Below, piece after piece: positions 11,071-60,439 of a stretch of DNA of 64,000 nt (position 1 is its first letter; the number at the start of each line of letters is the position of its first letter). The DNA comes from Cristatella mucedo (taxonomy: Eukaryota > Bryozoa > Phylactolaemata > Cristatellidae): the NCBI GenBank assembly GCA_009760855.2, contig WPIO01000024.1:487501-551500 (forward strand). The letters run 5' to 3'. Both the position numbers and the translations under genes were made by a program. A model generated the notes under the pieces. It was not told the origin of the DNA. It made no database searches and was given only the letters and a program-made list of their open reading frames with translations.

Positions 11071-11139
11071 CTGAATGAAAGGATAGCGAACGTAAAATAT
11101 GGGCGCCCGGCCAAGGTTCGAAATTAAGGCAAAGCATCG

Positions 11140-29000: not shown

Positions 29001-32000
29001 TAAAAAAGTTTTTATGTTGTATGAATGCTAATCACTGGTCCCCAGCCTCCCAGCCGTTTTTGTAATTAGACCTTGGTAGATAACAAGAATAATTCTGTCT
29101 TGCAAAGCCAGGTACCTGTGACAAATGCTGTTGCCTGGACATCGTATTTGTGCTTTAGATTCATTTAGCTCGAGTCTTGCACACTGCCTCTGTAGCCAAT
29201 CACTTGGCTTATAGAGTGCTTCTTGAGTCTTGAGGAGTGTGTCCTTCTGACAGTAATCACATTGCTTCCCATAATTTTTGCGGCAGGAATGAGGGCATAA
29301 CGGTTTCATGTTTTTGCGCTTTTACTCCACATCTCCACTGACTGTTGTGGCTATTTGGCCAGATCTGTCATTGTCATGATGAATCAGTAATTCCTAATCA
29401 TGTTTTAAATGCTTTTGTGTGTGTAGGTTAAAGCCCCTCTGACTGTTCGACCTAAAGTAGATAAATGCAGCGGTAAGAAGCATGCACTGAGCTGGAAGAC
29501 CTTTGAACCAGATCAGCTTGAGGATCCTGAAAAGAAATTGTCAAAGACAATCCCTGTGGAGACACGTAAAATACAGAGGCAAGTAGACGAAATTCGAGAG
29601 TGCCCTACTAATTTTACTCAGATTTATACTTTAGTCAGCGCGATACTCCTGGGGCTAGTATGCTGTAAGTGTAAACACGGCTTCACGCCTTTCGCATTGT
29701 CCCTGAGAGCGATCCCAGGAGAAATGCAGCTTGATTGCTTACAGCACTATTACTAAATCTTGTGCGTTCGTTTTAGCAGTTGCAATAAAAAATTATGAGC
29801 TTTCCAAATATTATTTATGTGAGGGTTTGTCACTTTAAACAATACTCTTACATGCGGTCCACGTATATGAGCCTTTTGCATTGACTCTGCTTTATCGTTA
29901 TATAGCAGAACTGTCATTTGACCATTACTCGGCTAAATGGCAAGTAAACCTGATAGGGTAATATGTCGTAGTTAAAAAGATTACAACTGCAATTAGACTG
30001 GCTCTGTCGCTCAATTCCCATAGGTGAACACCTCTTGTAACCGCGCAAACTTCTTTAAGCCTCTAATCTCTTTATAGAGCCTGAATCTGTAAAACCTCTT
30101 GGTTGCAGATCCCAATGAGGCTCCTCTGCTAGGTGACTGTTCGATTCTCTTCAGCCTGTGCCCTCGCCATCTGCTTTCAGCTCTTTGCACAATGACTGCA
30201 CAGGAATTTCCTTAGATGCAGGTTTATATTTTAGCTGATGATAAGTCACGACTCAAAACCGTCTGTGAACTTGCAGGTGTTTTGTTTTAGGAGCATTTGC
30301 CACGGCTTTCATATATCTGCTGCTGAATTTTTATTGATGATCAGAACTATTCAATGATAGAGCTGTGGTAGTTGGTCTCACCAAAATCCTATATGTACAG
30401 TGGTTTGTGATGTTTTTTTGCCTTTTGGTGCTTCCATTAATTCAATTATTGCTTGCGCATTATCATGATTCTTGTTGTGGATGGCCTTCGTAACCTGCAG
30501 CTTAAGGGATTGAGTCTTGCAGTAGGCAGGCCTTTGTTGGCCTTCTGAAAGTGGGGTGATAGCAGCAGCACCTCTCTTGCTGATATATACACAAGGCTGC
30601 TAGATTAGCTGGCCTTTACTTGTACTTGTTTATGGGGTAAGCAAGAATATAGCCAAGTCCTTCGTCTTTTTGAGCTGGCATTTATTCATTCAAACCTTAT
30701 GCTGTGTTTGTTTGCATTAGGGCTATACAATAATGAACTGCCTGCGTTCGTATGCTAGCGTGACGCGGTAATGCTTCTTTGCTACCTAAATACACGTTCT
30801 TGGCCGTGCATGCAAATTGCATGGAGAGCATAAACATCCGGACCGAACAAACAATCCTTCATCAAGTGTTTGTCTTTTGCACACTTACTTACACACACTT
30901 ACTTTTTTCCAGACAGTTTGCCACCTTTTGTGCTTCGTTCTTAATAATCAGGTTGACCGAGGGCTCCTGCTGATCATGCTCGAGCAATGCTGGCTTGCAG
31001 ATGACAATGTCTTTTTAGCCTCGTTCGATTTTCTTGTGTGTATGTGGAGTTTTTCCCTAACTGCAGAGCCGTGATTCTTGCATCTTAAAGCATGTACTCA
31101 AATCTGCTTCCCCCATCGTTTTTTTAGCAATCAAGTCATGCATGATCTTTGTCTGGTAAAGGCAAATGATAAGCCAAGCTAGCTTGTGCATACATGCTCG
31201 CTACTTTGTGCAATTCAGATGCGGTAAGAGGCATGTGTTGGGGGTCTAGTGCCCTACTCTGGGCATAAGTGGAATGGTCGGCAGGTATTGATGGGCCCCA
31301 CTCGTGTACTGCTGCTTGCCATGTCAGCAGCTCATCCTTGGAGAATTGAGTCGGCAGTCATAGTCATACTAAAGAGCTTCGTTTCTGCTGCTTCATAACA
31401 TTCTAATCTCACTGACGACTGCTTTCTTTCCTAAGCGATTGAATTTAGTCAAGGCTGTCTAGCTTTCAATGGTGCACACAGCAGCATTTCGCTTGACCTT
31501 GCTCGATGCTAGCAGTGACAGCTGGGTAGCCGGCCCAGCGATGAATAGCTGGCACGTGTTGATCTTACACTCAGCTTTCAGATCCATCCATAATAGTGCA
31601 AGTGTATTCTACTTACTGTAGAAAACCTAGAATGCTGGCCATGCTGTTTGTTGCTGTTTGGGACAGGGCACGCGACATCACGAGGGGGGCAAAACCACGT
31701 GGTATGCACGTTGGTGCCAAGCAGTTGCCCCTGACGTCTCGGCCTGCAGCTGTGCAGCCATCAGCTCCACCACTGCAGTCCATGTCTTCATTGGTGATGC
31801 AGCAACAGGCACTTGGTAAGTTGTGTCCCTCGAGGCAAGCATTTGGTGAATAACTTAATTTGCATGGAAGCCTTGATTGCATCTTGTGAAATCTGCTTAG
31901 CAAATCATTTTTGGATAACTTCTTCTCATTTAGCTCTTTAGCCTACTGCATGGCGTTTGGTTGCATGCAAGACTCTTATGTGCTCTATGGTGGGAGCATG

Positions 32001-34227
32001 TTACTTGCTTCATTAGTCTGGATTGGCTTATCAGAGCATTGCAATCAAAGATACAGTGCCACCACTGGCCGGTAGAGCTAGCTAACCACTTCTGAGCAGC
32101 CAGCGATCATTGCCACTCCAGCCATTTCTTTGTACAAGTCCCTTGCCTCTGGCTGTTACGGTGTGCTTGCTCATGGCGAGGTTTAAAGTTGAATACTCGG
32201 ATTTATTATTTGAGCTCAAGCTTTCATGTATGCAGCTTGGTGGATGCTGCTTTACTACTGAGCCTCATCTGTTATGTAAGTTACAAAATGTCAATGCTTT
32301 CAGCCTAGCTTGTTCAGTTCACATGGGTTGCCTCCATGGTTACAGAAGGGCACACATATGTTAAATGCTGCTATTTTCAGAGCTTGCTTATTCATTCTAT
32401 ATAGTGCTCTAATGGCCAGGTCATTTCTTTGGTGCTGTTTGCAGGATCACTGCTAATTTTACTGACTTTGGCTTTGACCTCTGAAATTTTATCTTTCGGC
32501 AATTTTGTCATGCCTTTGTGATGAGACTTATAAATATCTGCATTCTTTATTGAGACTGTTCTTGCCTGCTTGGATGTTTGTAACTACGAATTAAGGCTGT
32601 TTCACTGTTTCTTTCGTCGTGCATAATTAAGACTTTCATACCAGTCATTTTATAAAAAAAAATATCAAAAATTGAAGTGCATCACATGAAAGCAGACCAC
32701 CTACAAGACTCGGCTTAGCTGATTGCTGACATTCTGCCGATGTGAGACCGCTGCTTTGGACTTTGCTACTTCGGTCATATTGCTTTCCTTACGCAGGAGA
32801 CGTGACAAATATAACAATCCTGTCTCAGGAGTTGGCAATAATAATAATTATTATTATCATTATTGTAAGTCGTTTATATAACGCCCTAAGGGAACCAATC
32901 GTAATTCATGTGCTTTAACTCACTGTAAGAGAAGTAATAGCCCCGAGTTAATGAAAAGTAACATATCACTGCTTAGACAAGCATGCACAAGTTTATAAGT
33001 CACTCAGGTCCGCTGGTTCGTAGCACCCCTGGTTAGTAACATGCACTAAGCAATGCACAGGTAAGCACGCAAGGCACTTAGGAAAAAAGACATCCAGACA
33101 GTAGTGGTTTGACATCGAAGCTATGCTGTTGACGACAGACCAGACGAGCTGCCGAGTGTTGCACCAATTACAGATGATTAAGAACATGACCAGGAGTCCT
33201 GAGTAAAGGGAATCGCAGTAATCTAGGTTAGATGGCACAAACACACGAACTAGTTTTATCTTATTTGCCACCCCTCCTCTAATGCCAATAGCAAGTATCT
33301 TAGCTACCTGTTCAACTGTGAGGGCGTACGTAATGATCATTACAATGCCCAAAGTTCGGTATGTTCTTCTTTCCTCACCAATAGTATAGACTAGCTTTGG
33401 TGTGAGAACCACAGTGTGATCACTTGTACTGCAATTGATCCCATAAGGCACAATAAAGAGAGTTTTGTGGAAGGCCACACCAAATAGGCGGTCAGCCTGG
33501 CATTAGAGACATCTAAGGTGCCCCTGCCTCTCATTGCGGCTGTTTCAGAACTGTAGTGCACCCAAAAACACTTGGTTTCTATGGTATACTCGGCTTGAAA
33601 TGGTGTTGGCCGTAAGTAAGAGTTAGCTCTAGTTTCTCTTCTTTGCTAATGTAGATGTATGCAGTAAAGTGCTCGTTTTATTATTTTCTAACGTTCTTAG
33701 GTATTACTGGCTCGTGTTTTGTCCTTGATTTTTGCAGAGGAACCGTTAGGCACTGCATTCATGAGGTGACTCTCATATCTGATTGCAAGACACAGCAGTG
33801 TAGGGTTCTCACAGTTTTTGTTGAACGTGAGATATGTGCCCATGTGTATGTGGCTTGCTATTTTCTTCTAGTTAACATGTTCACCATTGTGCAGCGTGAC
33901 TACAGCCACTATGGGTTGAGCGTCCAAGCGTGCAGCTCTCAGCTACCTGCTGCAGCAAAGCGAGCGGCTCACCGGTACCCCTGTGCACTCGTGCTCCCAT
34001 TTTCCTTCCTGCTGTAGGAATTGCGTTCGAGACCGATGAAGGTGCGCTCAACAGCATTTTGACTTGCCGTGGTGTGACTGCGCCCCTGCTGGATAGAACT
34101 GCCTCCCTGAACGTCCCTACAGGAGTGCATTCACAATCTCAAACACTGCGTAAAGGCGGCAGTACTGTAAGTCAACCGCCTCTCTGTTACATTGTGTCAG
34201 CATCCTTGTGTGGACATTGCTACATGT

Positions 34228-34260
<33 letters not shown>

Positions 34261-37200
34261 ATTTCTATCATCTCTATCTCATCTTTTCCCTTTTTGCTTT
34301 TTGCTCGCTCCCTCTCTTGCTCTCATTATGCTATGCCTCTTCCTGCTTTACTTGCATGTGCCAGTGAAGGCCACACATGCAGCTGCACTTCAATCGTGTC
34401 AGTTACGGATGGGGCCAGGATTTTCATTTCAGGGGAAAGACCTGCAAGTAATTGCTAATCATAGCGCCCAATCGGTTGCTTATAATCGACTAGACATAGG
34501 ACATAATTTTGTCTTCGGTGTGGTTTGGGGGCTTAGGTTTAAGGGGCGGCCCGGCTTGCTTCTCCTTCTCTGAGGGGTGGGGAAAACTTAAAAGAGTCTC
34601 TGGCCAGCAGCTAAACAATTACCTCAGCTCCTCTGATCTTACTAGCAAGTTCCATTTGGGATTTAGAGCCAACCGTTTCCCAGAAACAGCTCTGCTGCAG
34701 GTTTACATTGATCTGAATAAAGCTGATCATGGTAGGGCCCTTTTGCTAGTTCTTCTGGATATCTCAGTTCTATTTGAGACACTTGACCACTAGATCCTCC
34801 TACGTCTCCTCTAGGTAGATCTGGGTATCACTGGCACACTGCCAGACTAGGTTAGTTGCTATCTTAGCGATGGTGATATATGTTAAAGTATAGATGGTCT
34901 GGTGTGCCATCAACGGTGCAGCTGCGGAGTCATGCCGTTTCTGTCTTTTCTATACTGGCCCCGTATCAGGCATCAAAACGACTTCAAAGTTTCCTTGCTG
35001 GCCTAGAGATCGCTTTATTCACTCGTACCAGTCTGTCTATCCTACCTCCTTGCTCCTCTAAATTGCTCTTGCACCACCAGTTCCTTGACTTCTGGTCGCC
35101 TTGATGGTCATCTCCCTTAATTGATATCTTTTGGTTATCGTACCTTGTGTTTGCATGCACCGAAAGTCAAGAACTAGCTTACTGATTCTGCACCACCTCT
35201 ATTTACTTTCCATCAAATGAGTCTCAGTTGGAGACAATTCTCTTCTGCTCAGCATTTCCTGCTTCCCAGTGAACCTGTCTTTTTCCTGTGTACTGGTGCG
35301 AGCCTACCACCAGTGTATATTTCTGTGCATGTTGCTAGCCAGTGATCCTGTTAACCGGTGGCTACGAGTGTCTGCTTACGTCCTTTTGCTTGCTTGTGTA
35401 TGCCTGATACCTTGCTTGTCTCCTGCTTGGTCCTCTCGGTTATTCTTTTTTTTGCAGCAATTTGTGAAGCGCCGGAATAGAAATTTAATTCTATTCGTGT
35501 CCTGTGCAAAAAAGGCTTATTATTATCTGCATTATGCACACCAAACCGTTCTCATACCAATCTGCTACTTATACCTAGGTAGCCTTGTGCCTTGCATGAA
35601 GAACTGGTGAGGCACTGTCTTGTATAGATGCTCGAAATCGAGTCAATAAGTCAGCAGATTGAGAATATAATTCCTGCTTTTCTGGCTCGAAAGTTTCTTT
35701 TGTTGCTAACCCTCCTCTCGCATGGTCGTTGCTGTAAGCACCCTCACATTGACCGTAGGTGTCAGCATATGCAAGGTAGCACACTTGATCTCCTGCTGGC
35801 CATCATTACCTTCTCATTTTCATGGCTGATTGGCGATTTGTATGCACTGGTCTGAAGCACCCGAGCAGCTCGTGCTTGGTGGGCGGCTGGGCTTTGACCT
35901 TTGAACTGTAAGACCGTTTGCTTAGGAATTCAGCTGGCCAGAGTGCGCTGGCCTTTACTTACAATGAGAGCTTCCTGTCACAAAGCTGTAGAGGTTCGTA
36001 TAGTATGACGAGCTCCATGAGACAGCAAACTTGGCTAGTGGCTTGGTCAGAGCATTGTAAAATGGGACAGTTATAATGTAATGTAATGTATCTCTGTCTG
36101 TAACTCCACAAAGTCATAAAGACCATGTGGGTGTTACGAAGGAGAGTTTTGTATAGCGCACTCACAGCCTAAGCGGCTTTCGGTACGCATTATCTCATTG
36201 ACTCCAGACAGCCACTGGAATTATTTAGTTACTATACTGAAAACTTCATATTGCAAATTGTGCATCTTGCCACACTGGCTACCCAAGCAGTGATTAACAG
36301 CATATTTGACACGAGCAAAGGCAAAAAAAGAATAGCTAGCTGACTAAGAGAACGGCCCAGGAAATAACTGGCTAAAGTTGTAGCCTTTACAGTTGTAGCC
36401 TTTAATTAAGGCTTGAAAGAAAGTGCCACAATCGACTGTAGATAGTGGGCATTGTACAGGAATTTAGAATTTAGTTTCTCAACTCTTGAGTCGAAGTCTT
36501 GTAGTCTTTGTGGTCACCTATCCACCGTTGACCTTGACGAATGCTGCTTACTCATCTACAGCCATCCTTGAGACTATCAAAATTTGCATGGCCATATTAG
36601 AGCTGGGATTTCGACACGGTAGACGGTCTGCCGAAAACATTTTGCTGTTTCTGATGCTGTTTGCTGACTGTACTGTGCTTCAAGAGCATTGAAATTCAAG
36701 CACAGAGAATATGGTAAAGGTTTTGTGTTGCAGTTTGGCGCCCGAGCCTCTGTCTATGCCACTTGTGAATCCCGCTATAATCTTCGGGATGGTCTAATTC
36801 AATGGAAACCTACGTTGGAGAGCAAGCATTGCCCAGAGCACACGGAAAGTCTTGTACCTGTCGGTAAGCTACTAAGCTAAGTTAATGCCCGAGATGTGGT
36901 ATTTCAGCCATCATATCTTTAAAACCTAGCATTATCGCTAGGATTTTGCTAATGCTTGTGTGCATTTGACTAGCTGTTGGTGGTCTACACACAGCTTGAT
37001 GGCTATACTCTGCTATCTGCTCTAACGATTTCTGGCTTTTGGGTGCTTGTTCTTCGTGAAGTAAAAGTCTTTGTAAACAATAACTTAGTTTTTGTCATCT
37101 CATGTGGCTGTGAGCACTTCTGGTTCAAGAGTCATCTGCATGATCTGCCCATGTGCTTAGAACTTTCTGCAAAACTACTTCTAATAATCTTCTTCTACTT

Positions 37201-40200
37201 CGACAGTGGGATCTTATGTATAAGCTGGATATAATAGGCCATAGATTATTCTAGTAATTCCTGTATGTGAGCAAATCGTGTTTATGCTTATGTGTCATTT
37301 AGGTATGAAACCTTTTCTGAGAATAAAGGATCACATACCTCAAGTGCGTTTAATATACTGATTTATTATTCTTCTGCAGCAACTCCATTTAGGGAGTCAT
37401 GCTACAGGAATCGTTATAAAGTAGCTGAAAGGAATTCCGTTTATGTAAAATATGTCACCGAGGAGGAATTTCGAAACCAAAACTTAAGCAGAATGGTACA
37501 ACCGACTCCGGGACGCTCGACAATTGCAACGGTACGTAAAGTTGCATATAGTAGCTGTTCTCTTGGAAATGCTGCCAACGCATAGCAGCTGACTTTGCGT
37601 GCATCTGTTTGCTGCTGTGGCAATTCTGTTGATCTGTTTGTGATCATCTGTAGCCTGCGAGGGTACGACTGGCCACAAACAAGCAGCCGATGCTCGAAAC
37701 GCCCTTTCTCATGGAGCAATTATCTGATGTTGCACAGGTATGACCATTTAAGAATATGCTGGTGCGTATTTATGTTGACTATTTATTACCTCACGAGTTC
37801 TGATATGCCACTGTTACTGTGCCTCTGTTGAATTTCTGTTTATCATTGATTTTCTGAGGGCTTGCCCACATCTACAAGGACACAGCATGACCTAGCTGAA
37901 TAGGAATCCCTGTGTCGAAAGCTGCTTATGAGCCTGTCATATGCCCTTGGCCAATAGTGGCATTGAAGTGCCGTCTGTGACTTCTTATGGAGCTGGAGCC
38001 GAACACAACTGTACAGTCGTGACTTTAAGATGCCTTATGAGTTCACTGGCTACGATACCTTGCCAAACATGATTAACTCGTCATATTTTTTTTTATAAGA
38101 TTTCAATGTAACTTTAAAGGGTTCTTTGTTCTGGAGGCTGTATACATTTCGGTTTTTAAAATCAACCCCGGGCGACCAGATTGCAAGAGTGTAGAATTAG
38201 CTTGTTGTGACACATGTGTCAAGTGAGAACGTGCTGTATCTTTTGATGGTAAAATGGTGCATATTCCTTGAATTACGACGTAGCCACTGTTTTGATACCA
38301 TTTTATATAAGGCAGTTTGTTTTGATACCATTTTATATAAGGCAGTTTTGGCTTTTGATCCCCGAGGCAAGTTAAGTCATAATCTAGTTGCATGCCATAA
38401 TATGAACTTGCTTATACCTGCAGTAAACGTTATGCAAGTTGATTAGGGTGTATTGCTGAGTGCTGATTGGCCTATGTTGTATCATGCAGTTTATTCGTAA
38501 TAACCGGCTATCTCACCAATGTGTGCACACCGTAAGGAAAACCGTTAAAATCGAGGTGCACCTTTTTTGCATGGCTTGTCTGCACGAAGATCTTAGAATG
38601 AAGGCATCACTGTCTAGGTGATTCGTCTGAAATTGGTTTAAGCAGCGTTGAGGTTTTATAATCTCTAATGCTGTGCTACCAGAGTGGATGCACTAGCTGA
38701 TAGTCGTGGTGTGACCTTTGCAACTGCATCCCTCGCTTAATGGTGGTGGGGCATTTTTTAAGACTACAAATGCAAGGTCTCTGGCACGGTCGTGGCGTGA
38801 TATCTTCACTCAAAGGAAAGGTGATCATGCATCACTCCACAGCTCTACTCAGCAGGCTGAGGTACGTTGTTTTAGCCCCGTACCTCAATCTATTTGCCAG
38901 CCACTACTACCTGATAGAATTGGACATTGTAAAGCATTTCTTTTTGCTTACTAGATGCATGACGATCTCAGGAGGACACTCACGTTCGTCGAAAGTGAGA
39001 CAGAGGGGCCGGCGATCAGGGACGCGATCAGCAGCATCACCGACAGCGATAGGACGGCGGCAGAGCGCGCTGCTGCAGCCACCACGTGCCGCCTGTCTGA
39101 AGCTGATGAAGAGCTGATTGTAGGAGCAGCCACGCTGCTGGCGCCGGCGTGGCGCATGCTTTTTCCGTCGCCATCGTTTCTGCGCAGAACCTTTGTCCGT
39201 GACGGCGATCGCGTGCGTCGTTTGGCCTAGGGCATCGAGGAAATAGAACGTCGTCTCCAGCTCGAAATCGAAGCCATGGAGCGCGCAAAGACGGCCGACG
39301 CGGAGAGAATGGTCGAGGTGCTGGGCTTCTCCGCTGGGCCGTCTGCCGCAGCAGCAGCATCGTGCAGCGACGAGCGGGTCGCAGCAGCAGCAGCCGCCGA
39401 TGCTGTTGTTGCCCGCCTCCGCTGCCCGCCGAGGGCGAGCGCCGAGCGCCCGTTTGACCGGTCCTCGTCAGCATCGCTCCTCCTCGACGCTCTGCAGCAC
39501 TTGTCGCTGGGCAGCTCGCCAGAGCTCCCCGGAGCCACCTCGCGATCGTCCGAGCCGGAGCGGCACGCCGCGACGGACGTGGCCTCCCCCGCGGCGAGGT
39601 CAGGCCAGGGTGGCAGCGCGCCGGAAGCTTGGCCGCCTGCGTCGACGTCCTTACTGCTCTCTGCGAAGGCAGCCGACGACGATCCTGCTGCCCCTGCTGC
39701 TGCCCAAGAGGCCGTGCAGCCTGCTGGTGGCCGGCTGACGCCGGCTGAGCCGTTGCGGTCGCCGCGCTTTCAGCCCTGCGAGCGGCCGCATGCGGCGGTG
39801 GCCGAGATCGACTGCTCGGCTACAGCTGCCGTCGAGCCCGACTCGCACGCGGCCGACCTGCCCACAGAGATGGAGGTGGACCACCAGGGAGTGCACGGTA
39901 TCCGACAGACCGACGTGCTGCACGCTGGCGACGGCAGCGGCGGAGGCGAGCGAAGTCCGCTCGAGAGCGAGTCGCTGCGCTCGCAATCCCGCTTCATAGC
40001 CGCCATCGACCGACTCGGCGGCGGAGGCAGCAGCAACTATGCGGCCGCTAGGGCGAGCTCGGAGGAGGCGCCGTTCTGGGAGCCGATGGCGCAGGAGTCA
40101 TGTCGCTCCGGCCCACCTGCCACCGCTGCAGCTGCTGCTGCTGCTCCTGATTCGCGGCAGTGCAGAGCAGGGCTCGCCAGCGCGGTCGGAGGAGGCGCCG

Positions 40201-41336
40201 TGACGTCCGGTTGGTGTCGGTGGGCGGCGACACTATCGGCGAGTGCCACTTCCGGCTGGACACCGTTGGTCTCTGCACGCTTTGCTGCGTCTGTCCCGGC
40301 CTCGTCCTGCCCGGCCCTGCTGGAAGCTGAGCAGGAAGCCGAGCTGGATGTGGAGGCGTGGCACACGCCCGTGTTCAGGCAGCGAGCCGGCACGATATCT
40401 GTGCTGGACTGCGGCGCCTACAGCCCCAGGGCAGCGGGGACTGGCGCTGGGACGGCTTCCGGCGAGGCGGACGGCACTGCTCGGACACGATGGCGTGGAC
40501 CCGTGCAGCAGCAGCAGCAGCTCGCTGCCACTGCCGTGCCGCCCGGCGGTGGCAGCGAGCCTTTCGAGGCCGATCGCCCAGAGAGCTCGGGCACGATCGA
40601 GCCTCCGCCTCCTCAGCAGCTGACCAGCACCTTGTACACTGGCAGCCCTTGGCTTCAGCAAATCGCCGGTCGTCCTGGCGATGACACGTGCGATCGGCAG
40701 CCAATGGGATGCGCCGTTGATGAAGCCACACACCGGGTGTCAGATCAGCAGACAATGGCTGCGTACGGTGTCGGCGCGGCGCACTGCCTGGCCTCTGCAG
40801 CAGCCGACCGAGGAAGCGGCCGCGTCTTGCCGTTGCGGTCGCTTGCCTCAACGGCTGCCACGATCGTGGAGGCGCGACCATCTCTCGACGGCGCCGCCGC
40901 TACCTCGCCGCCGAGCGCTTTCGTGCGCACCGTGGGGAGTGGCGCAGCGGACGAGGCAAGACTTAGGCCGTCGCTGTCGGGCATCGCATTGGCCCCGCTG
41001 CTGCAGCAGCAGCAGCACACTCCCATTGCCATGGCACTCAACTCTGTGCAAGGCATCGTTGCGGTGGACTCGTCGGCACTAACGCCCGGCACTGCTAGCG
41101 TGACTTTGTCTACTGCCAGCAGCAGCAGTAGCACACCGGAGCTTCTGTACCAGCTCTCTCTCATGGGTTTGCTTATCAATGCGGCTGAGAGGTTTGAAAG
41201 TGTGCTAGTCAATGAGGAGTGTGCGCTGTACCTGTGTCGCGCCTCGACACGACTGAAGCAGCAGCAGCATTCGCCATTCGCCCGAAGTGAGCTGCCTGAT
41301 CCGGTGGCGATTTCGCTCACCCACGGCGACGACAAG
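22979..41336 (+). CDS. Gene 2: unrecognised multi-exon protein (10 visible exons)
   Basis: Gene span on the plus strand; the coding parts are the exons listed separately: 22979-23041, 26081-26357, 29427-29578, 31667-31815, 34018-34166, 36734-36863, 37380-37531, 37654-37737, 38763-38861 and 38955 onward. Every junction keeps one frame, which is strong evidence that the model is broadly right. The product begins basic and Ser/Pro/Lys-rich with KPAPA repeats, has a charged middle with TPFRESCYRNRY and PTPGRSTIATPARVR, then acidic/helical segments, and finally a long Ala/Ser/Pro/Gln-rich disordered region. I do not recognise the family. TP-x-R motifs and basic disorder occur in spindle and cytoskeletal proteins, but that is only a guess. 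A TAG at 39228 interrupts the last exon. Confidence 0.75.
23075..23202 (+). mobile_element. tRNA-derived SINE copy 1
   Basis: Diverged copy with a B-box-like GAGTTTTAGTCC, the family core GGCCAATCCTTTATTGCCAAG and the 3' end motif GAAGCTTTTAAATCAGC. Confidence 0.6.
23745..24135 (+). repeat. Unclassified diverged interspersed repeat, copy 2
   Basis: Collinear partner of 21470-21870 in the same orientation; see that entry for the shared blocks. Confidence 0.6.
24140..26080. other. Gene 2 intron
   Basis: No supported exon. A short LINE-like tail remnant (AGCCTTAAGAGAACTAAATC) lies at about 25610-25680. Confidence 0.5.
26081..26357 (+). CDS. Gene 2 exon, basic N-terminal region with KPAPA repeats
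   Basis: Acceptor tattttcttgcag, donor GAG|gtatgc, phase 2 in and phase 0 out. It encodes a hydrophilic stretch rich in Lys, Arg, Ser and Glu, with a 15-bp tandem at 26278-26330 giving APAKP repeats. The first ATG in frame is at 26124 (MGPPELLVEKT). Upstream the frame is open to the acceptor, so this can be either the start exon or an internal exon. Confidence 0.75.
26278..26333 (+). repeat. 15-bp coding tandem repeat
   Basis: Units of AAGCCTGCACCTGCA, about 3.5 copies, encoding KPAPA in gene 2. Confidence 0.95.
26358..29426. other. Gene 2 intron with old LINE-like remnants
   Basis: Decayed tails at about 28025-28310 (minus, ATAATAATAAATTATTTATA then AGTGCTCTAAGAGTGCTAC) and 28755-28810 (plus, GCAAATGTAAAGTGCCTAGC). 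No host exon was seen. Confidence 0.5.
28025..28310 (-). mobile_element. Old family C LINE-like 3' fragment
   Basis: Minus strand. A 112-codon open remnant follows the tail sequence; no motif is strong enough to assign the exact part of the reverse transcriptase. Confidence 0.4.
29427..29578 (+). CDS. Gene 2 exon with GC donor
   Basis: Acceptor gtgtgtgtag, phase 0 in. It encodes VKAPLTVRPK, then HALSWKTFEPDQLEDPEK, then VETRKIQ. The best end is AG|gcaagt, a consensus GC-AG donor in phase 2, which joins perfectly to the exon at 31667. No GT donor near it gives a compatible phase. Confidence 0.78.
31667..31815 (+). CDS. Gene 2 exon
   Basis: Acceptor gtttgggacag, donor gtaagt, phase 2 in and phase 1 out, 149 nt. 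It encodes ARDITRGAKPRG and a Pro/Ser/Gln-rich stretch ending MQQQAL. Confidence 0.75.
31820..34015. other. Gene 2 intron with a family C LINE fragment
   Basis: Apart from the LINE-like fragment at 32840-33490 I see no supported feature. Confidence 0.5.
32840..33490 (-). mobile_element. Family C L2-like LINE 3' fragment
   Basis: Minus strand. The ORF at 32993-33478 has SNLDYCDSLYSGL, matching the SRLDFCNSLLAGL box of families A and B but strongly diverged. It ends in an ATT/ATC-type tail near 32845. Confidence 0.55.
34018..34166 (+). CDS. Gene 2 exon
   Basis: Acceptor cttcctgctgtag, donor ACT|gtaagt, phase 1 in and phase 0 out. It encodes FETDEGALNSILTCRGVTAP, then a Ser/Thr-rich part ending TLRKGGST. 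The first part could form an amphipathic helix. Confidence 0.78.
34229..34254 (+). repeat. (CT)n microsatellite
   Basis: About 26 bp CT repeat running into a TCTATCTC-rich stretch. Confidence 0.95.
34590..34900 (+). mobile_element. Diverged family A reverse transcriptase fragment
   Basis: The frame encodes QQLNNYLSSSDLTSKFHLGF and LLLVLLDISVLFETLDH, a decayed version of the LDLSAAFDTIDH box. A degenerate 3' tail (TTTGCAGCAATTTGTGAAGC) may belong to it near 35450-35540. Confidence 0.6.
36070..36195 (-). mobile_element. Family B LINE 3' tail
   Basis: Minus-oriented short copy: ATGTAATGTAATGTATCTC, GTAACTCCACAAAGTCATAA, ACCATGTGGGTGTTAC, CCTAAGCGGCTTTCGGTACG. The terminal repeat is visible as TAATG units. 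Confidence 0.8.
36734..36863 (+). CDS. Gene 2 exon
   Basis: Acceptor tttgtgttgcag, donor gtaagc, phase 0 in and phase 1 out, 130 nt. It encodes FGARASVYATCESRYNLRDG, then WKPTLESKHCPEHTESLVPV. Confidence 0.8.
37380..37531 (+). CDS. Gene 2 exon
   Basis: Acceptor attcttctgcag, donor ACG|gtacgt, phase 1 in and phase 0 out. It encodes TPFRESCYRNRYKVAERNSV, then a charged stretch ending PTPGRSTIAT. A TP-x-R motif occurs in both halves. Confidence 0.82.
37654..37737 (+). CDS. Gene 2 exon (84 nt)
   Basis: Acceptor catctgtag, donor CAG|gtatga, 28 codons in phase 0: PARVRLATNKQPMLETPFLM, then EQLSDVAQ. It continues the basic/TP-rich segment of the previous exon. Confidence 0.8.
38288..38347 (+). repeat. 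30-bp tandem duplication
   Basis: TTTTGATACCATTTTATATA plus AGGCAGTTTG occurs twice in direct succession within a gene 2 intron. Confidence 0.95.
38763..38861 (+). CDS. Gene 2 exon (99 nt)
   Basis: Acceptor gcattttttaag, donor GAG|gtacgt, 33 codons in phase 0: TTNARSLARSWRDIFTQRKG, then DHASLHSSTQQAE. The upstream frame is closed by TGA at 38712, so the acceptor must lie between. Confidence 0.68.
38955..41336 (+). CDS. Gene 2 large GC-rich exon, interrupted by in-frame TAG
   Basis: Acceptor tttttgcttactag. It encodes MHDDLRRTLTFVESETEG, then a helical Ala/Arg-rich part ending in TAG at 39228-39230. The same frame then runs open to 41460: GIEEIERRLQLEIEAMERAK, polyAla, polySer and polyGln, and a more ordered end with YQLSLMGLLINAAERFESVL. 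A donor AAG|gtagcg at 41336 is in phase 0; past it the peptide looks non-coding. A run of about 740 codons without a stop is unlikely by chance even at this GC content, so both sides of the TAG are probably coding. Alternatives are a true stop with a long open 3' UTR, a second start at Met 39276, an allele or sequencing change CAG to TAG, or a tiny intron. Confidence 0.65.
39228..39230 (+). other. In-frame TAG in gene 2 exon
   Basis: The codon is TAG followed by GGC. The predicted helix on both sides (VRDGDRVRRLA and GIEEIERRLQLEIEAMERA) is continuous in character, so a former CAG glutamine is plausible. TAG is used as the normal stop of the asparagine synthetase gene in this window, so a reassigned code is not suggested. 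Confidence 0.9.
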
Positions 41337-41584
41337 GTAGCGTGGAGGGGCGTGTGCTGCTTGTTTTGCTTCCTCGTTCGACGGTTCGACTGTGTCTCTC
41401 GCTGGTGGTGTCCGGCGCTTGTGGTCGAGCTTGTCGTGCAGCAGCTGTTAGTGCAAGGATGAGCACACTTAGTTGTTCATTGTGCGTGGTAACACGACTC
41501 AAGTCAGATGAGTAGATGTACTATAAAACCACCACCACTAGCTGATTTAACTGCGTCTTTAATCAAGTGCAGATGAGCCTTGAC

Positions 41585-42225
41585 GGCTAGGAAGCCAGAT
41601 TAGCAACTATTTCAGATAGGTAGGTCGGAGCAAGAGAATGAAGGGACATAAAGGTTGGTAGTATTGGCATGGAAGAAGATTTGCAAGTAGTGAATTGCAG
41701 AAGCTTAGGCGTGTTGTCACAAATGCATGGACCAGTTTGGCTGTGGTATTCTTATCTAAGCAAGCCTGAATGTTTGTAGTGTTATGTAGGTGGCAGTTGG
41801 CACATTCTGCAGAGCTGAGGCTGTAATGTAGTGAAAGATTATTTTGGAACAGTATACCCAGGCTCTCTACACAGGCTACTAGAGCTGTCGTATGGGCTGT
41901 TGGACAAGCCTATTTCAAGTGGTATAATAATAATAATAATACGCCCTTAAGTATAGCGCCCTCAAATCACTTCTTTCCTAGCTAGGCATAGTTGAGTTTC
42001 AGTTTCTTAGTGGCACCAAGGGTGCTCCTAATGTTAAATTGGTTTTTATCATCATTTAAGTTGTAAAAGTTTTGCTGTCTTACAAATGCAAACGTCAGCA
42101 GTACATGCTGCAAAGGGTTTGGGTGAGTTTGGTATTAATAAAGGCTGATTGGGGGATCAAAGTAAAGGTACATAACTGTGTGTCGTCTGCTTAATAATGA
42201 AAGCCTAGATTGTGCTTGCAATTAT
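41585..42225 (-). mobile_element. Diverged family A LINE fragment
   Basis: Minus orientation: GAATGAAGGGACATAAAGG, CACAAATGCATGGACCAGTT, GGTTTTTATCATCATTTAAG, GAAAGCCTAGATTGTGCTTG. An ATA-repeat tail of another insertion sits inside near 41925-41985. Confidence 0.6.
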
Positions 42226-42865
42226 ATAAACAATTCAACTGTGTGAGCACAGCACGTTCAATGTTGTGCCGCAAGTTAACCGGGCTATTACAGAGTAGAA
42301 GTCTGTGGAGTAGTTTGCTGTGTAAGCACAGCATGCTTGATTTTATGCCGTATATCAAGCTGGGTGTTACAAGGCAGGAGTAAGTGATTGGTGCTGTAAT
42401 GTTTTCTTGCTTTGCACTCAAGATACTCGAGAACTGATATGCCTAATCAAAGTGCACGGCACTTTTACAATGACTTTATCAGTAAACTGACATTTCACTT
42501 ATCGAGTATTTGTATTGCTTAGTAGCCAGTAAATCGTCATGAATCCTGCATAACTCGTGCTGCACAAACTCCTGCCTATAGGTATTTCCTAATAACTACC
42601 AGTTATGGCTTACCTTATGCATCTATTTAATTGCAGCATTTTATACCGATCCGGAAGACTGACTCAGAAGACTCACTCTCAACTACTTCGTCGCACGAAG
42701 GATCTGCATTTCGCTGCTATACACCATAATTAATCTCACCCTTAGCATGGGTGACTGACGTCTGCCTTACAGTTTTAACGTCAGGACCATTTGCTTTGAG
42801 CAGTTCCGGCACTGCCCTTCTTTTGGGGCTGATGTCACTGCCGTATTTATTTCTCCGTCATACAA

Positions 42866-43014
42866 GTATTGTTTGGTATGATGCGTCGGTTTGATGCTGA
42901 GATCTACATTCTGCCCGGCGAACGTTTGTTTGCAAATAATTTTTCCAAAATGGACATGAAAACGGAGATTTTTGTTCAATCAACTAATGAAAAAGTTATC
43001 AAGCTGGAGCCAGG
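42866..43014 (+). CDS. Tentative orphan exon
   Basis: A plus-strand frame encodes FDAEIYILPGERLFANNF, then TEIFVQSTNEKVIKLEPG, ending at a possible donor CCAGGA|gtatgt with a possible acceptor cgtcatacaag. It reads like protein but I do not recognise it. It could be a further exon of gene 2, though its entry phase does not fit the AAG|gtagcg donor at 41336. Confidence 0.25.
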
Positions 43015-43717
43015 AGTATGTCATCCCAGCACAAATGTGAAGACTGGCATGTTTAAGTGATGATCATCTACTGCTGCGACTTTTATTTTCGTGGCACCTG
43101 CGTGCCAACTGAGGTCAACTGGTGCCTGCTGAGACCCCTAGCTTATAATCAGCGATCGTGATATGAGTTTTTTATTGTAATGCCATAGGCGTTATCATAT
43201 GACTACGATGACAGATTAGTGAACTTTTACCCGGGTCGTGTCGCTAGTACTTGTGTAATCGAGGGCTGTAACAGCAATAGCAATCATGTAATATATACAT
43301 ATGCATTTCTTCTGTCATTTACAAGTGCCTGAAGGCCCTTGGACTTCCAAATGATTGCTGACCGCAGAATGTACTAGAGTTGCAATAAGGCATTGGTGGG
43401 CTTGATGGCCGATGGTCACTATAGTTGATTCGTCAATGAGGCCGTCAATGATAGCCACACTCGCAGGACCGAGCCAGCTGCGACATTAGCTGTGGCTAGG
43501 CAGCCAATAGTAGCTAAATACGGAATGGCGAATGTACGTAATAGCTCGTTCAAGGTCTTTCCCATAGCAGCAGAGGCCTTATAGATTTGATAAAACATAA
43601 CAACAGGTCCTTCGTATGGCGCCGGAAGAGAACCGAATGTCTCGGTGCTTGGCAAATCGCTACAAGAACAAGGCTTATTGACGCTGTTCATGCTTTGACA
43701 ATCTAAGGGATTGCTAT

Positions 43718-50800: not shown

Positions 50801-52057
50801 AGAAAGGATTTGGTACAATTATGGTGGTATATACATGTTACATTATTTTTCTTATAGCTATTATCTGCCTACGGGCTGCCGTCCAATTGCACATCATGAA
50901 ACCGTTGCTGACAGCTGCCATAATGTAGGGTCCGGTGGCTAGGGACAATACCGGGCAGCAGTCAGACTTAAATCAGTGGGCACTGACTTAAATCAGGTGG
51001 CATCGACTTCACTCGGGTGGCACGCCCCTTCGGCTACCCTTTATAGTATCGTCCGACCTGGCAAGGTCATGTTCGGGCCCCACATAACAACTTCCAGCGA
51101 CGCCAATGCTCATGACACATCGTAACGATCCCCTGAGCAGAAGCTGCACAATTGATGGCGATTTGCTCAGCTCGGCTCAGACTGGTGGCTACAAGCAACT
51201 TCCCCAAATCCATCACCACAATACCACTGCGTTGCAAGCTTCCTCTACCCCTGCCTCGGAGCAGCCAACGAAATCGAAGCCCTCTACGCGGAGCTCGCTC
51301 ACCTGCTCGGCAATGTACGCCTTCAGCACTTCAAACAACGGCTCTTTTGGCGACGATACGCCGTTGCTGAACGGTACCTTTTGCCTGAACAATATCTCCT
51401 CGGGAATGAGCCCCAGCCCGGAGAAGGCGGTCCGCAGCAGGTACTTCTCGATGCCTTTGGTCGGCACTCGATCTTCTGCCGGTAGAGATAGATAGTAGCC
51501 GGAGAACTCGTGGTCCAGAAAGGGACATCTCAGCTCCAGCCTGGAATGGCAGCGCCACGAAGCAAGTTGTATACAAGTGGCCACAAGTATAGCCATCTGC
51601 TGCAACGATGGACAACCCAGTTTCAGGTCTGAATGAAACGTCTTATGCCCATACCGGGTGGGTATGCATGCATCTAGACGTGTCACACCATCCAGCCTAC
51701 ATGCAGGCCTCGCGACTGCAATGCCAAGGACCACAGTGCAAAGGTTATGATACGGCGACAGACAGACTGACGATGAACATGCTGACTAGCTGGCGTACGG
51801 TAACCTAGACAAATCACGGGACAAATCACTGGCAGCTATAGTGAAGAAAGCACAACCCAAGCGCATTTGCCGCCTGCCATCGACTAGCCATTGGGAGCTG
51901 GCACAAGGACTACCCTGAGGGAGCCCTTGGACGGCGGTAGGGTAATTTACCGAAAAAATGCAACCGTCCTTCTAAACTCTGCAACGAGCCGTGCCGACTA
52001 CACGGCGGAGCAAGAATGATGCCGAGCCGTGTGGAAGACGTGCAACGACGGCCGGGG

Positions 52058-52128
<71 letters not shown>

Positions 52129-55100
52129 GAGGCTGCACGAATATGCACGAGCCACACTGCTGTGAAGTGGCAAGAGCTTGTGATTGCTTACGCTAGGGCA
52201 ATCACCAAGATGTAGAGCAATCAGGCACGCACACGTGCACATGCACGCACACATACACATACAAACACAGAGGAAACCATGCATATAGAATGCAGAGAGT
52301 GCAAGAGAGAAAGAAGATGAGTGAGAGACAGACCGACAGGCAGATAGGATTCATGAGGGATAGCCAGAATGAGGGACAGACAGAGCTCGATACATTGAAA
52401 TACAGAAGAAGGAGGAGGCAGGGAGCACACATCACAGTGAAGCACAAGAGCAGACCCGATCCCAATGAGAGCTTGGCAGAGCTTACTGGATTAATCTAGG
52501 CTGATGACAAGTCAAATATGCCACATGCTACTGTGGTTTTGCAGAGGGGCATCAAGTTTTAAACTTACACTCTTCTTAAAATATCGATGACATTAACGGG
52601 GCTCGCTAAACGAGCAGGCAATCTTCGGGAGCACACCACCTTTCTCCGTTTTGTACAGACTACTGCATTCGCACGAATCGGAGGCCCGACATCGAGGTGC
52701 ACTCAATTGGTAATTAAGCGCCCGGCTAGGAGTATACAGATGGGCAGATTCTGCTGCTTTGTCCGGCGGCTGCATAGTAAACACCAAAGAGCGGCCTCAA
52801 ATACTGCATTCTACCTGCATTTGACAATGAATGCATAGTAAACACCAAAGAGCAACAACAAAGGGCTGGCACCAGTGTTCGTGCAGCCGGCAAGAGCAGC
52901 GAATATGACACAAAAGGAGCAGCTTGTAGCAACTGCCGAGAAGCTGCTAGCAATAAATGAGTAAAACACTAAAATCATCCGACCATATGGGGATCACGTG
53001 TAGAGGCACTTCTCCTCGGTTCTACTTGCTCCCTGTGGCCCTGCCCGAGGCAAAAAATGGCTCTACTTAAAAAGGCATCCCTAAAAGGCTTCACTAGACG
53101 AGGCTGACCAGCCTAGGCCATATACAGCAAGACAACCATTCGCAAAGGCTACGGAACCTAAGGCTGCTGCCGGAACGGGCAACCGTCTGCCTGCATGACT
53201 TGCTTTGCCTACACTCGGAAAACCGGAAGGCGATAGCCGATATGTAAATTTCGGGGTGTGGAGCGATCGCTGATTGATCGCCGGCACCGCTGACGCTCAC
53301 CCGAACGCAGCGGTCATTCTGTCGGCACGCAGCCCGTCGAAGTAGAGCAGGTCGTTGAGCAGACGCCGGCTCTCTGCATCGCCGACCTGCACCGACGGCT
53401 GGCGATGGAAGTAGATGTAGCCCTGGCACAGCTCGTCCGAGCCCTCGCCTGAGAATATCACCACCGAGTCCGTCTTCTGCCCTACGTGCTTGCTGATGAG
53501 GTACATGCCTGTGACGATGTGCGATGCAGCTCGACGCAGCAGCGGCAGCAGCAGGAGGCAGCATGGTCACCAGCTCGGCGTGCGCAAGCCACTGGCTCAC
53601 ACAGCAAGTGTATCGAGGGGCACCTCATCAGTACAAAGGTGCAGGGATGCACGACTTCTGCAACTCACTGCTTACTGGCCTACCAGCCTGTGCGATCAGG
53701 CGATTGCAGCTGGTGCAAAACTCTGCAGCTAGGCTTGTCTGTCGTGAGCGTCGCAGTTGCCACATTACTCCACTTCTCGCCGACCTGCACTGGTTACCAG
53801 TCAAGCAACGGATTGACTTTAAGGTTTTGTCGCTCACTTTTAGGTCTCTTCATTCTATGGCTCCAGCCTATCTTTCAGATATACTACCCCATCAGGCAAA
53901 GCATCGTACCACTCGCTGTTCGGAATCCAACAGTCTAGAAATACCTCGTACAAACCTTAAATCCTTTGGAGACCGTGCATTTAGCTCGTATGCTCCCACA
54001 GCCTGGAACTCCCTCCCGACCTGCATCAGAACATCCCCTGACCTGACCACATTTAAAAGAAACTTAAAACATACCTATTTAGGACAGCATTTAGTGGGTC
54101 CTTGTGATTCGTCCTCGATGTGCTTATGCGTGCTGACACTGTTCATGCTGCCACTAACCACATTTGCATGCTGACCCAGTGCATGTAACCCCTAACCATG
54201 TTATTCATTTTGTTTGTTTTTCAAGCATGATTTTACTTACTATTCTATTGCGTATCACTTTGCAGCAAATGTAAAGCGCCTAGAAAGAGATTAAGTTCTC
54301 TGAGGGCGCTTTATCAAGTGCAATATTATTATTATTATTATTATAAGACTGCGATCGAACGATAGGAACGCCAACTGCTACGATGCCTATAGCTGACATC
54401 TGCGGGGCCCGGCAGCACCGTATTGCCTGCCTGTTTAGAGGCCTAGAGGCAGTCAGCAGCAGCAGCAGCAAACTCGCGTCATTTTCGGATGGCCTGTCCC
54501 AGCTATACAGATACATAAAAAATGCTAAGGTAAAAAAGTTAATGTTAGCTGCTCGAACAGCCTTGTTTCTATAGTGGCAGACGAGCCTCAGAGGCAAACA
54601 TTCTGCTCACAGTAGGCAATCAAGGATCAAGCCTGCTTCAGGAATCGAACCCACGACCCGACTCGTGAAGCGCTAGCACCTTGCCCTCGGGCTAAGACCC
54701 CGTGTAACATGCATGCATGGTGGCAAAGTAATGCTCCAATGAATGGTAGAACCACTGGCCCTATTTGGTGAGGTAGCCTCTCCCCTTCTGCCGGAATAAT
54801 ATTAGCATTAATAATTAGGTTTCAGGCCAACAAGGGTGACCGGAAAAATGTGACTCGCGAATTCATAGTGCTTCTGCTTCCTTCTCAGTCTCTCCAGCAC
54901 GTTGTTGCTTCCAACAACGTCTCTACCTTGCAGCTTTTGCAGCACTCCGACGCATCGGAAGCACTTCAGAAGCCTCGTTCTGGCACCTCTCCGCCCCGTT
55001 GTTGTTGGCGTGATGGCGGCTGTGTCTTCGTGGATTCGCCGCGTCGTCTGCATCAGCTTCCTTCTATGTCTTTCCCACACGGAGAATGTGCCCTTTCTTT

Positions 55101-58100
55101 CAGCTTCTTTCCTTTCAGCATCTTGATTGGCATTCATGCGAAAAGGTACTGGCAGAGAATTTAAAGTCTAGAATCCATTGTCAGCCATTTAACAAATACG
55201 AAAAGTCAGCTAGTCTAAGCAGAAGAGCCGAAAGTTTTTCTGGGGCAACAACAAAGGAGTTGAGGTATAGGGAGCTCAAGCAGCCTGAAATGCCGTGGCC
55301 ATCTTTTAAAAAACCCTTTCAAGTTGATAGTCCTGTGAAGTTCTAGCATTTCAATGTCCAACTTCACCTATGACGAAACTTCCAATCTCCTATGAAGATT
55401 GTGGGCCACAAAGACAAGAATGATTTATCATTTCAAATTTTAATTGTGATTCAAGTGAAACTGATCCACTGAAACTGCTCCTCACCATGCGACCGAGGAT
55501 ATTAGCCATCAACGACGATGTAATGTAATATATCTCTGTCTGCAACTCCACAAAGCCACAAAGACTATGTGGGCGTTATGCAATAGAGTTTTGTTTAGCG
55601 CACTCACAGCCAAAGCAGCTTTCGTTACGAATTCGGTAGCCAACAGACTATATCTCACGCAACAAGGAGAAAGTGGGAAGCATAGCAGAGTCAGGAGAGC
55701 AGTTGAGGTAGTGAGTAGCATGGAAGTAGCAGCTCAGGACCACTGAAAAGGATGTGCCATAGTCGGCAGCAGGAGAGTATGATAACGTCCTGCTCTATCT
55801 ATAGTCAGCATTTTATACTGCTGACTACTGCCTACTTGAATCTTTGAGGACTACAATCGGTCTGGCTGATGAGATTAAGGCCTAGTTCGAATGGAACTTG
55901 TCCGATCGCGTCCAGTCCATGTCGAGAAGCAGTCCAGCAGTCGGATTCAGCAGACTAGTCATCCGTGGTATTCCACGAGGATATCACCCCTTCCCTTTTC
56001 AGGCTGTCTTCTGAAAACTTTTTTAAATGTTAACAAGTCCTACAAGTCGCCACCTAAATTAAGAGTATTAGATGCTGTTTGCACCCTGGCGCCATTAAAT
56101 AGACGACCATAGTCAGCTATTCCAGACGTACAGCAGAGAGGATTTCGGTTTTATTCACTCGCATCGTAAAGGCCTCACAGGGCAATACATTACTGGTTCC
56201 ATTACTTTCACTTGAAGTAAGTTACTATCTTGTCTCAGAGAACACCACTTCACAAAGTCAGCATTGCTTCGGCATTATTACGACCTTCTCAGGAATGCAG
56301 ACTCAGATGAAGTCTCTGCTTTATTGCTTGATCTTTCAGCAGCATTTAGTACAACTGATCACCGAGTCTATCTCGTGGTCTCTTGTCTCGCGTGGGGCAT
56401 AACAGGCACTGAAATAGCTTAGATTCTATATCAGTGGAAGATTCCGGAGTATTGATGTAAGCAGATAAAGACCTATCACCTCCCTTGCCACATGTTTTGC
56501 TGACATTCCACGAACCGACCACATCAGGTCCACAGACAAGTTACAGCCTAGTTTCAGTTGCATCACATTGCATAAGTTTGTGGCTACTTTGACAGGAATA
56601 ATAAATACAAGTTGGTCCATGCATTAGTGACATCCCACCTCGACTTCTGCCACTCACTACTTGTCGGTCTACCGACCTATGCAACCAGGAGCTTATAGTT
56701 GGTGGCACACTCTGCAGCTTGTCTGTCGCAAACGTTTCAGTTGCCACATCACACCTATTCTTGCCGATCTGAACTGGCTCCCAGTTAAACAGTGCATCGA
56801 CTTCAAGGTTTTGCGACTCACTTTTAGGTCCCATCCTTCTCTGGCTCCAGCCTACCTATAAGAGCTACTCTCCAACCAGGCAAGGCATCGTACCACCTGC
56901 TCTTCTGACTCAATCGTTTAGGCCTCGGACGAAACTCAAATCTTTTGGGGACGGTGCCTTTAGTTTGTATGCTCCCAAAGTCTAAAAATCACTCTCGACT
57001 GACGTTTCGACATCTCCTAACTTGACAACTTTTAAAAAGAAGCTAAAAATGCACCTGTTTCCCGTAGCATTTGCTGGGTCCTTGTGTCGTGTGTGCTTAT
57101 GCATGCTGACACTTTGCATGCTACGACAAACCATACGTGCATATTGACATTTTTCATGTTACCACTAACCATATTATGCATGTTGACACAGTGCATATTA
57201 CAATTAGCCATATAAACATGCTTTCTTTACAGCATATACAAAGTGCTTACAAAGAGATTAAGTTCTCTGAGGAAGTTATACAGTTAAATTGTAATTACTA
57301 CTATAAAAAGCATTAAGAGCAGACGTTTTGCTCTACAGGGTCTTAGACTGTGGAACCGGCTTCCACAGTTCTTATGCAACATCCTCTCTCCTGCTGCCGA
57401 AGTGGCGCGCCATTTCCAGCCGTCCTCAGAGGCTGCTTCCATGCTACCCACGCGCTACAGCGACTTTCCTTCTGACTCAGCGCTGCATTTTACGTTCTCT
57501 TTGTTAAGTGAGATATAAAAAAAGTAAAGGCTAGTTGGTTCAGCAACCTCACTTATAGAGCGGCAAAAGAGCAGTAAAGGGTATTACTCCTGCTACTACA
57601 GAGGGTAATAGATTATTGCCTGGACTACAGGACTCAAATCTACGAACTTCCGGTTGTGCAGTTCGAGCACCTTGGGCCAAGGCCTGGTCTGTTGGCTACT
57701 TTTGCATACCGGAAGCTGCTTAGGCTTGGAATGCACTTTGGGAAACCCTCCACAATTACACCGTCTCAATCTTACTGGCATTAAAGAGCTTAAGACAAAG
57801 ATACATATTTGCATACACAGAAACCTTCACCTGCAAACGTGAGCTGCTCGACAAGCCGTTTGTGGAGGCCTCGACCTGCTCCCACTTAGCGCTTTTCACC
57901 AGAGTAAGGAGCATCGCGTGCTGCTACCTATAGATGGCTTTGCAGCACCAAGGTTGCATATTAGGCCAGGTGAGTGCCACGTCCTTACCAATAGATGCTC
58001 TGATCGTGCCTAAGTCGTAGCTCTCGAGGTGATAGATAATGTCTTTGATGGCTGCTATACCATCTGAAGCCGTGAAAATCAACTCGTGATGTTCAGTGCC

Positions 58101-60340: not shown

Positions 60341-60439
<99 letters not shown>

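What the first reader, a model, noticed from the sequence alone, without database searches (positions are those of the whole stretch)
38955..41463. Single in-frame TAG inside a very large coding exon of gene 2
The exon that starts at 38955 is in phase with nine upstream exons. After 91 codons there is a TAG at 39228, but the same frame then stays open for about 740 codons with protein-like content on both sides of the stop. One C-to-T change (CAG to TAG) would explain it, as would stop-codon readthrough, a second start at 39276, or a very small intron (GT...AG spans of 18 or 36 nt ending exactly at this TAG keep the frame).
Basis: partly seen in the sequence, partly recalled or inferred. Interest (0 to 1): 0.75.

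Follow-up and report, generated by a model that had tools for sequence, protein, structure and literature searches.

The report
Lone stop codon in tastin-like gene
A large coding exon of an invertebrate gene that may be tastin carries one stop codon with coding-like sequence on both sides; the likeliest causes are ordinary (a nonsense variant or sequencing error, or an alternative splice site that ends exactly on those three letters), not a new way of reading the code.

Summary
The exon that opens at 38955 is entered in phase 0 from six phase-consistent upstream exons, meets TAG at 39228-39230 after 91 codons, and its frame stays open to 41462. The exon probably ends at 41286 or 41336, so 685 or 702 codons follow the TAG. 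The run is not chance: 0 of 2000 shuffles had as few stops. The 40 codons after the TAG are clearly coding; the 91 before it are coding-like (joint test 6 and 4 of 4000 shuffles). No second copy, Pfam or useful PDB match was found. Two blocks, one on each side of the TAG, resemble human tastin (TROAP) in the same order, but that sequence was typed from recall. No sign of a changed nuclear code, a Gln-type amber suppressor tRNA, or a 3' structure was found. A simpler splice route was missed: the AG of this TAG has acceptor-like context, and joining exon 38763-38861 straight to 39231 keeps the frame and drops the TAG. I rank a nonsense allele or base error first (0.42) and splicing past the TAG second (0.33). 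Transcript reads would decide.

The parts
31667..31815 (+). upstream coding exon (out phase 1)
   Evidence: open frame between scored splice sites, phase agrees with the next exon
34018..34166 (+). upstream exon; start of the block that resembles recalled tastin
36734..36863 (+). upstream coding exon; its first codons end the tastin-like block
37380..37531 (+). upstream coding exon
37654..37737 (+). upstream coding exon, phase 0 in and out
38763..38861 (+). exon just before the large one, phase 0 in and out, donor GAG|GTACGT (4.5), weak acceptor (-2.2)
38955..41336 (+). large coding exon, G+C 0.67, single in-frame TAG; acceptor ttttgcttactag (4.6); end at 41336 (donor 0.9) or 41286 (donor 2.8)
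39228..39230 (+). the in-frame TAG; also an acceptor-like AG (score 1.3, best of the 10 TAGs in the exon) in phase with exon 38763-38861
38995..39351 (+). candidate frame-keeping exonic intron of 357 nt (donor 2.9, acceptor 0.4)
39120..39230 (+). candidate frame-keeping exonic intron of 111 nt ending on the TAG (donor -1.4, acceptor 1.3)
39276..39278 (+). in-frame ATG in GCCATGG context, 45 nt after the TAG
41115..41243 (+). C-terminal block resembling the recalled tastin C-terminus, downstream of the TAG
42867..43060 (+). possible last exon; candidate starts 42867 and 42902 have weak acceptors (-3.2 and -6.3), so uncertain

Best explanation
One gene without a second copy in the assembly, probably tastin-like, runs through the TAG. 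The sequenced haplotype, or the assembled base, carries a nonsense change inside an otherwise sound coding exon. If the change is in the DNA, this copy makes a protein that ends after the 91st codon of the exon and lacks the roughly 700 residues that follow, including the C-terminal block; other copies in the population would be uninterrupted. Shown: one frame, coding-like on both sides, phases that agree, a single stop, no second copy found. Inferred: that the change is a variant or an error.
For: One stop in 777 codons while the other five frames have 7 to 21. Open plus coding score of the 91 codons before the TAG in 6 and 4 of 4000 shuffles; the 40 codons after it 1, 2 and 5 of 1000. Six hand-picked upstream exons agree in phase. 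Tastin-like blocks lie on both sides in the recalled human order (20 of 3000 and 16 of 3000 shuffles). A single-sequence fold, TAG read as Gln, gives one helix from residue 73 to 123 across position 92 (mean pLDDT only 56, no alignment). No second copy found. No sign of a changed code: in 30 myosin loci (2707 matched codons) 6 have a TAG at codon 1 to 4 of the match, that is at the exon edge, and one, L032, has a TAG at codon 13 and a TGA at codon 83 of 92, unexplained; the other 23 have none.
Against: No reads, no second haplotype and no orthologue could be examined, so the base itself is untested. The TAG has an above-average acceptor context (96 of 917 TAGs in the window score as high), which a chance nonsense change does not predict. 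The 36 codons just before it are ambiguous. The coding score is partly matched on the minus strand (frame 0 is best of six frames in 10 of 26 windows).
Confidence: 0.42

Rival explanations
1. The TAG is spliced out. Its AG is an alternative 3' splice site: exon 38763-38861 joins 39231 in phase 0 and gives the long protein, while use of 38955 gives a short protein that ends at the TAG. Less likely variants are exonic introns 39120-39230 or 38995-39351, which also keep the frame.
For: Phase 0 on both sides. Acceptor score 1.3 is the best of 10 TAGs in the exon, reached by 96 of 917 TAGs in the window. Of 25 best AGs near myosin match edges (27 of 30 loci used; not all need be real junctions) 7 score lower and 5 are TAG; the seven acceptors of this gene score -2.2 to 6.2. 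The best frame-keeping pairs of 60-500 nt over the TAG (38995-39471, 3.4; 38995-39351, 3.3) are equalled at 0 of 468 codon positions tested between about 39500 and 40900 (few, correlated pairs). Coding signal is strongest right after the TAG. TAG read in frame at exon edges was seen in 6 of 30 myosin loci.
Against: The acceptor at 38955 is much stronger (4.6) and the G+C step falls at 38955, not at 39231. The 91 codons before the TAG look coding (6 and 4 of 4000). Excising 38995-39351 would remove clearly coding sequence (0 to 3 of 1000), and 38995-39471 even more.
Confidence: 0.33
2. Programmed stop-codon readthrough makes a long minor form of the protein.
For: Long coding extension in the same frame; CAGCAGCA, an 8-mer found near 23% of mosquito readthrough candidates against 8% of other transcripts (PMC5100048, passages seen), occurs about 120 nt downstream of the TAG.
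Against: UAG followed by G (not a leaky context, recalled); no structure in the next 100 nt (191 of 200 shuffles fold at least as well); abundant readthrough is placed after the divergence from centipede (PMC5100048, abstract); no Gln-type suppressor tRNA found.
Confidence: 0.07
3. Two products: a short protein that ends at the TAG and a second one started at 39276 from its own promoter or by reinitiation.
For: In-frame ATG in GCCATGG context 45 nt after the TAG; clear coding signal in 39231-39350.
Against: The predicted helix starts well before that ATG (weak model); promoters were not examined.
Confidence: 0.07
4. The gene has recently lost function in the species and the TAG is its first lesion.
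For: One stop in a gene without a second copy found.
Against: No other stop in the frame of the exon; splice sites present.
Confidence: 0.07
5. A-to-I editing turns UAG into a tryptophan codon.
For: UAG is a favoured ADAR triplet (recalled).
Against: The local fold is no better than shuffles (172 of 200 at least as stable); none of the 25 longest inverted repeats shown, of 73 found, covers 39229.
Confidence: 0.02

Closest known systems
Tastin (TROAP), human
   Same: Two blocks in the same order: IAFETDEGALNSIL...RASVY and the C-terminal ...NEECALYLCRA (human sequence typed from recall)
   Different: The rest does not align (junction segment: 242 of 300 shuffles at least as good; whole C part 108 of 150); human tastin has no internal stop (recalled)
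Alternative 3' splice sites and exonic introns (exitrons, PMC4484396, search listing only)
   Same: In-phase AG acceptor at the TAG; frame kept
   Different: No transcript evidence; weaker than the acceptor at 38955; exitrons proper carry no stop
Metazoan programmed readthrough (PMC5100048, abstract and passages seen)
   Same: A stop followed by an in-frame coding extension
   Different: UAG-G, no 3' structure, no conservation data

Membership tests
Tastin/TROAP | N-terminal and C-terminal conserved blocks in order | tested here: inconclusive
   20 of 3000 and 16 of 3000 shuffles; reversed target 30 and 33 against 51 and 49; the human sequence is recalled, not retrieved
Tastin/TROAP | Match to a curated family model | not testable with these tools
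   No Pfam family matched the pieces of the gene that were scanned; I know of no Pfam model for TROAP (recalled)
Programmed stop readthrough | Coding extension in frame after the stop | tested here: met
   39231-39350: 1, 2 and 5 of 1000 shuffles
Programmed stop readthrough | 3' stem-loop or leaky stop context | tested here: not met
   z +1.4 for the next 100 nt; UAG-G read, its rank among contexts recalled. Only a minority of known cases have a predicted structure (9% of mosquito candidates, PMC5100048), so this is weak
Programmed stop readthrough | Stop codon conserved between species | not testable with these tools
   The tool states that this genome has no relatives here
Alternative 3' splice site | AG with acceptor-like context, phase kept | tested here: met
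   Score 1.3, phase 0
Alternative 3' splice site | Spliced transcripts | not testable with these tools
   No RNA reads
Reassigned UAG or suppressor tRNA | UAG inside conserved coding sequence, or a CUA tRNA | tested here: not met
   30 myosin loci, 2707 codons: TAG at codon 1-4 of the match in 6, plus L032 with TAG at codon 13 and TGA at codon 83. Gln-type CUA anticodon-arm pattern: 1 hit, no tRNA called; control CTG pattern: 10 hits, 8 called tRNA-Gln. Other tRNA types not tested
ADAR recoding | Editing site in a stable duplex | tested here: not met
   a partner outside 37500-43100 or among the 48 shorter repeats not shown is not excluded

The most novel reading that the evidence does not exclude
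The TAG is a maintained switch in a spindle-type gene: the default product is a short tastin-like protein, and a full-length form arises when the stop is bypassed by readthrough, editing, or use of the TAG as a splice acceptor that is also the stop of the longer exon.
Probability: 0.15. Interest if true: 0.5.

Novelty: new member of a known kind. Interest (0 to 1): 0.22.

Why it matters
If a nonsense allele or base error, it is a caution for annotation: the gene would be split in two or cut short. If a phase-0 TAG acceptor, it is a clean example of how an in-frame stop in a long exon can simply be the end of an alternative intron, a possibility to check before readthrough is claimed.

Tried and rejected
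Tiny introns of 18 and 36 nt: donors -0.9 and -6.0, far below usual animal intron length (recalled). Intron 38995-39187 (donor 2.9; acceptor 4.63), a strong-looking pair: it shifts the frame into a TAG at 39244, read from the sequence. A reassigned code: no support. Gln-type suppressor tRNA: not found. Readthrough structure and editing duplex: not found. Second copy: none found (beside the gene itself only two matches at E 0.31 and 0.38). Identity by Pfam and PDB: nothing useful; the two PDB rows, E 0.66 and 0.68, are antibody heavy chains, taken as chance. A home-made whole-window gene finder was too permissive and was dropped; a chained version did not reproduce the full gene model and did not prefer one entry phase, so the phase-0 chain rests on the hand-picked exons. 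Organism: COX1 reads sensibly with invertebrate mitochondrial code 5; not named further. A wider codon training set from kinases failed: the search answered but its loci were not cut out; in its table the first 9 of 141 rows have no stop inside, the tenth and several later ones do, and these were not examined. The myosin codon model and the acceptor survey used 27 of 30 loci: L019, L023 and L032 were left out before counting, and L032 is the one with two internal stops; one search counts all 30. In the whole myosin table 21 of 86 matches contain a stop by my count; only the 30 with loci were read.

Full report
What is there. The window is part of a 572-Mb genome in 688 contigs, an invertebrate to judge by its COX1, which reads sensibly with mitochondrial code 5. 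The exon starting at 38955 has a T-rich acceptor. Its frame meets TAG at 39228-39230 after 91 codons and then runs open to 41462. Six hand-picked upstream exons (31667-31815, 34018-34166, 36734-36863, 37380-37531, 37654-37737, 38763-38861) chain in consistent phase into it at phase 0. The exon probably ends at 41286 (donor 2.8) or 41336 (donor 0.9): from 41337 the frame no longer looks coding, although G+C stays high for about 100 bases more. A last exon near 42867-43060 is possible but weakly bounded.

Is it more than chance. Over 38955-41286 frame 0 has one stop while the other five frames have 7, 9, 11, 18 and 21; 0 of 2000 dinucleotide shuffles had one stop or fewer and none reached a 685-codon open run. 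With three codon models, 39231-39350 is coding (1, 2, 5 of 1000 shuffles as good), 38955-39227 moderately so (66, 14, 24 of 1000), and 39120-39227 unclear (765, 26, 294 of 1000). Requiring the 91-codon part to be open and to score as high leaves 6 and 4 of 4000; the same for 39120-39227 leaves 32 and 667 of 4000. As a contrast, the in-frame stretch 41337-41459 in the same G+C-rich patch is not coding-like (256 and 222 of 4000 open and as good, of 1026 and 1028 that were open). Frame 0 is the best plus-strand frame in 18 of 26 windows of 90 bases from 39015, including the four from 39015 to 39374, but some minus-strand frames score higher: it is the best of six in 10 of 26.

What gene. No Pfam family in the pieces scanned, no meaningful PDB relative, no second copy (beside the gene itself only E 0.31 and 0.38; only the gene's own exons at E up to 1). 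Two stretches resemble human tastin as I recall it: codons of 34018-34166 plus 36734-36863 (score 51, 20 of 3000 shuffles as good, reversed target 30) and 41112-41336, aligned over about 41115-41243 (score 49, 16 of 3000, reversed target 33), in the same order, one on each side of the TAG. The segment around the TAG does not align (242 of 300 shuffles as good), nor does the C part as a whole (108 of 150). This is a lead, since the human sequence was not retrieved.

Why there is a TAG. (a) A nonsense allele or base error: fits one stop, splice sites in place, coding on both sides and no second copy found. It cannot be proved without reads. (b) Splicing: the TAG carries an acceptor-like AG. Its score of 1.3 is the best of 10 TAGs in the exon, is reached by 96 of 917 TAGs in the window, and lies above 7 of 25 best AGs near myosin match edges. 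Joining 38861 to 39231 keeps phase 0, and TAG read in frame at the match edge was seen in 6 of 30 myosin loci. Exonic introns 38995-39351 (357 nt), 38995-39471 (477 nt) and 39120-39230 (111 nt) also keep the frame. Against (b): the 38955 acceptor is stronger (4.6), the G+C step is at 38955, and the 91 codons look coding. (c) Readthrough: UAG-G, no 3' structure; abundant readthrough is placed after the divergence from centipede, and readthrough is more readily lost at TAA and TAG (PMC5100048, abstract and passages). That paper also cites a proposed annelid case and reports predicted structures in only 9% of mosquito candidates, so readthrough is not excluded. (d) Reinitiation at 39276, good context, no further evidence. 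(e) Editing: no duplex found. (f) Code change or suppressor tRNA: no support; of 30 myosin loci 23 have no stop in the match, 6 have a TAG at its edge and one (L032) has two internal stops, unexplained; the Gln-type pattern hit is not a tRNA while 8 of 10 control hits are.

A single-sequence AlphaFold model with the TAG read as Gln gives a helix over residues 73-123, crossing position 92, with block means of 69 just before and 90 and 93 just after. It fits an unbroken protein but is weak evidence: overall pLDDT is 56 and such composition favours helices anyway.

Verdict. I put 0.42 on allele or error and 0.33 on splicing past the TAG; the rest is spread over readthrough, a second product, recent loss and editing. 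These numbers are judgement, not computed; the recount changed none of them.

Noticed in passing
51303-61379, minus strand: Exons of an asparagine-synthase gene (PF00733 in 2 of 2 exons tested, E 4e-18 and 3e-16); a third exon at 53301-53508 looks related by eye.
   Followed up: partly
12722-13927 and 15383-17221, minus strand: Two reverse-transcriptase stretches (PF00078, E 8e-29 and 1e-33), remains of retroelements; described only.
   Followed up: partly
10375-11123, minus strand: G+C-rich stretch of short tandem units, with weak pentapeptide-repeat and HC2 matches below Pfam's cut-offs.
   Followed up: no
G000:C166:4375626-4376390 (L037): A piece resembling mitochondrial COX1 on the same contig as the window, with 6 TGA; further pieces on C83, C549 and C299.
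   Followed up: no
L007 and L010 (G000:C40): Two muscle-type myosin exons with the same translation about 37 kb apart, suggesting a recent duplication.
   Followed up: no
L032 (G000:C665:1299905-1300180): A myosin-like match with a TAG at codon 13 and a TGA at codon 83 of 92; may be intron read through or a decayed copy.
   Followed up: no
39188: An acceptor inside the large exon (4.6; tttctgcgcag), the best of those scored between 39100 and 39420, lies 40 bases before the TAG; its use would shift or stop the frame.
   Followed up: partly
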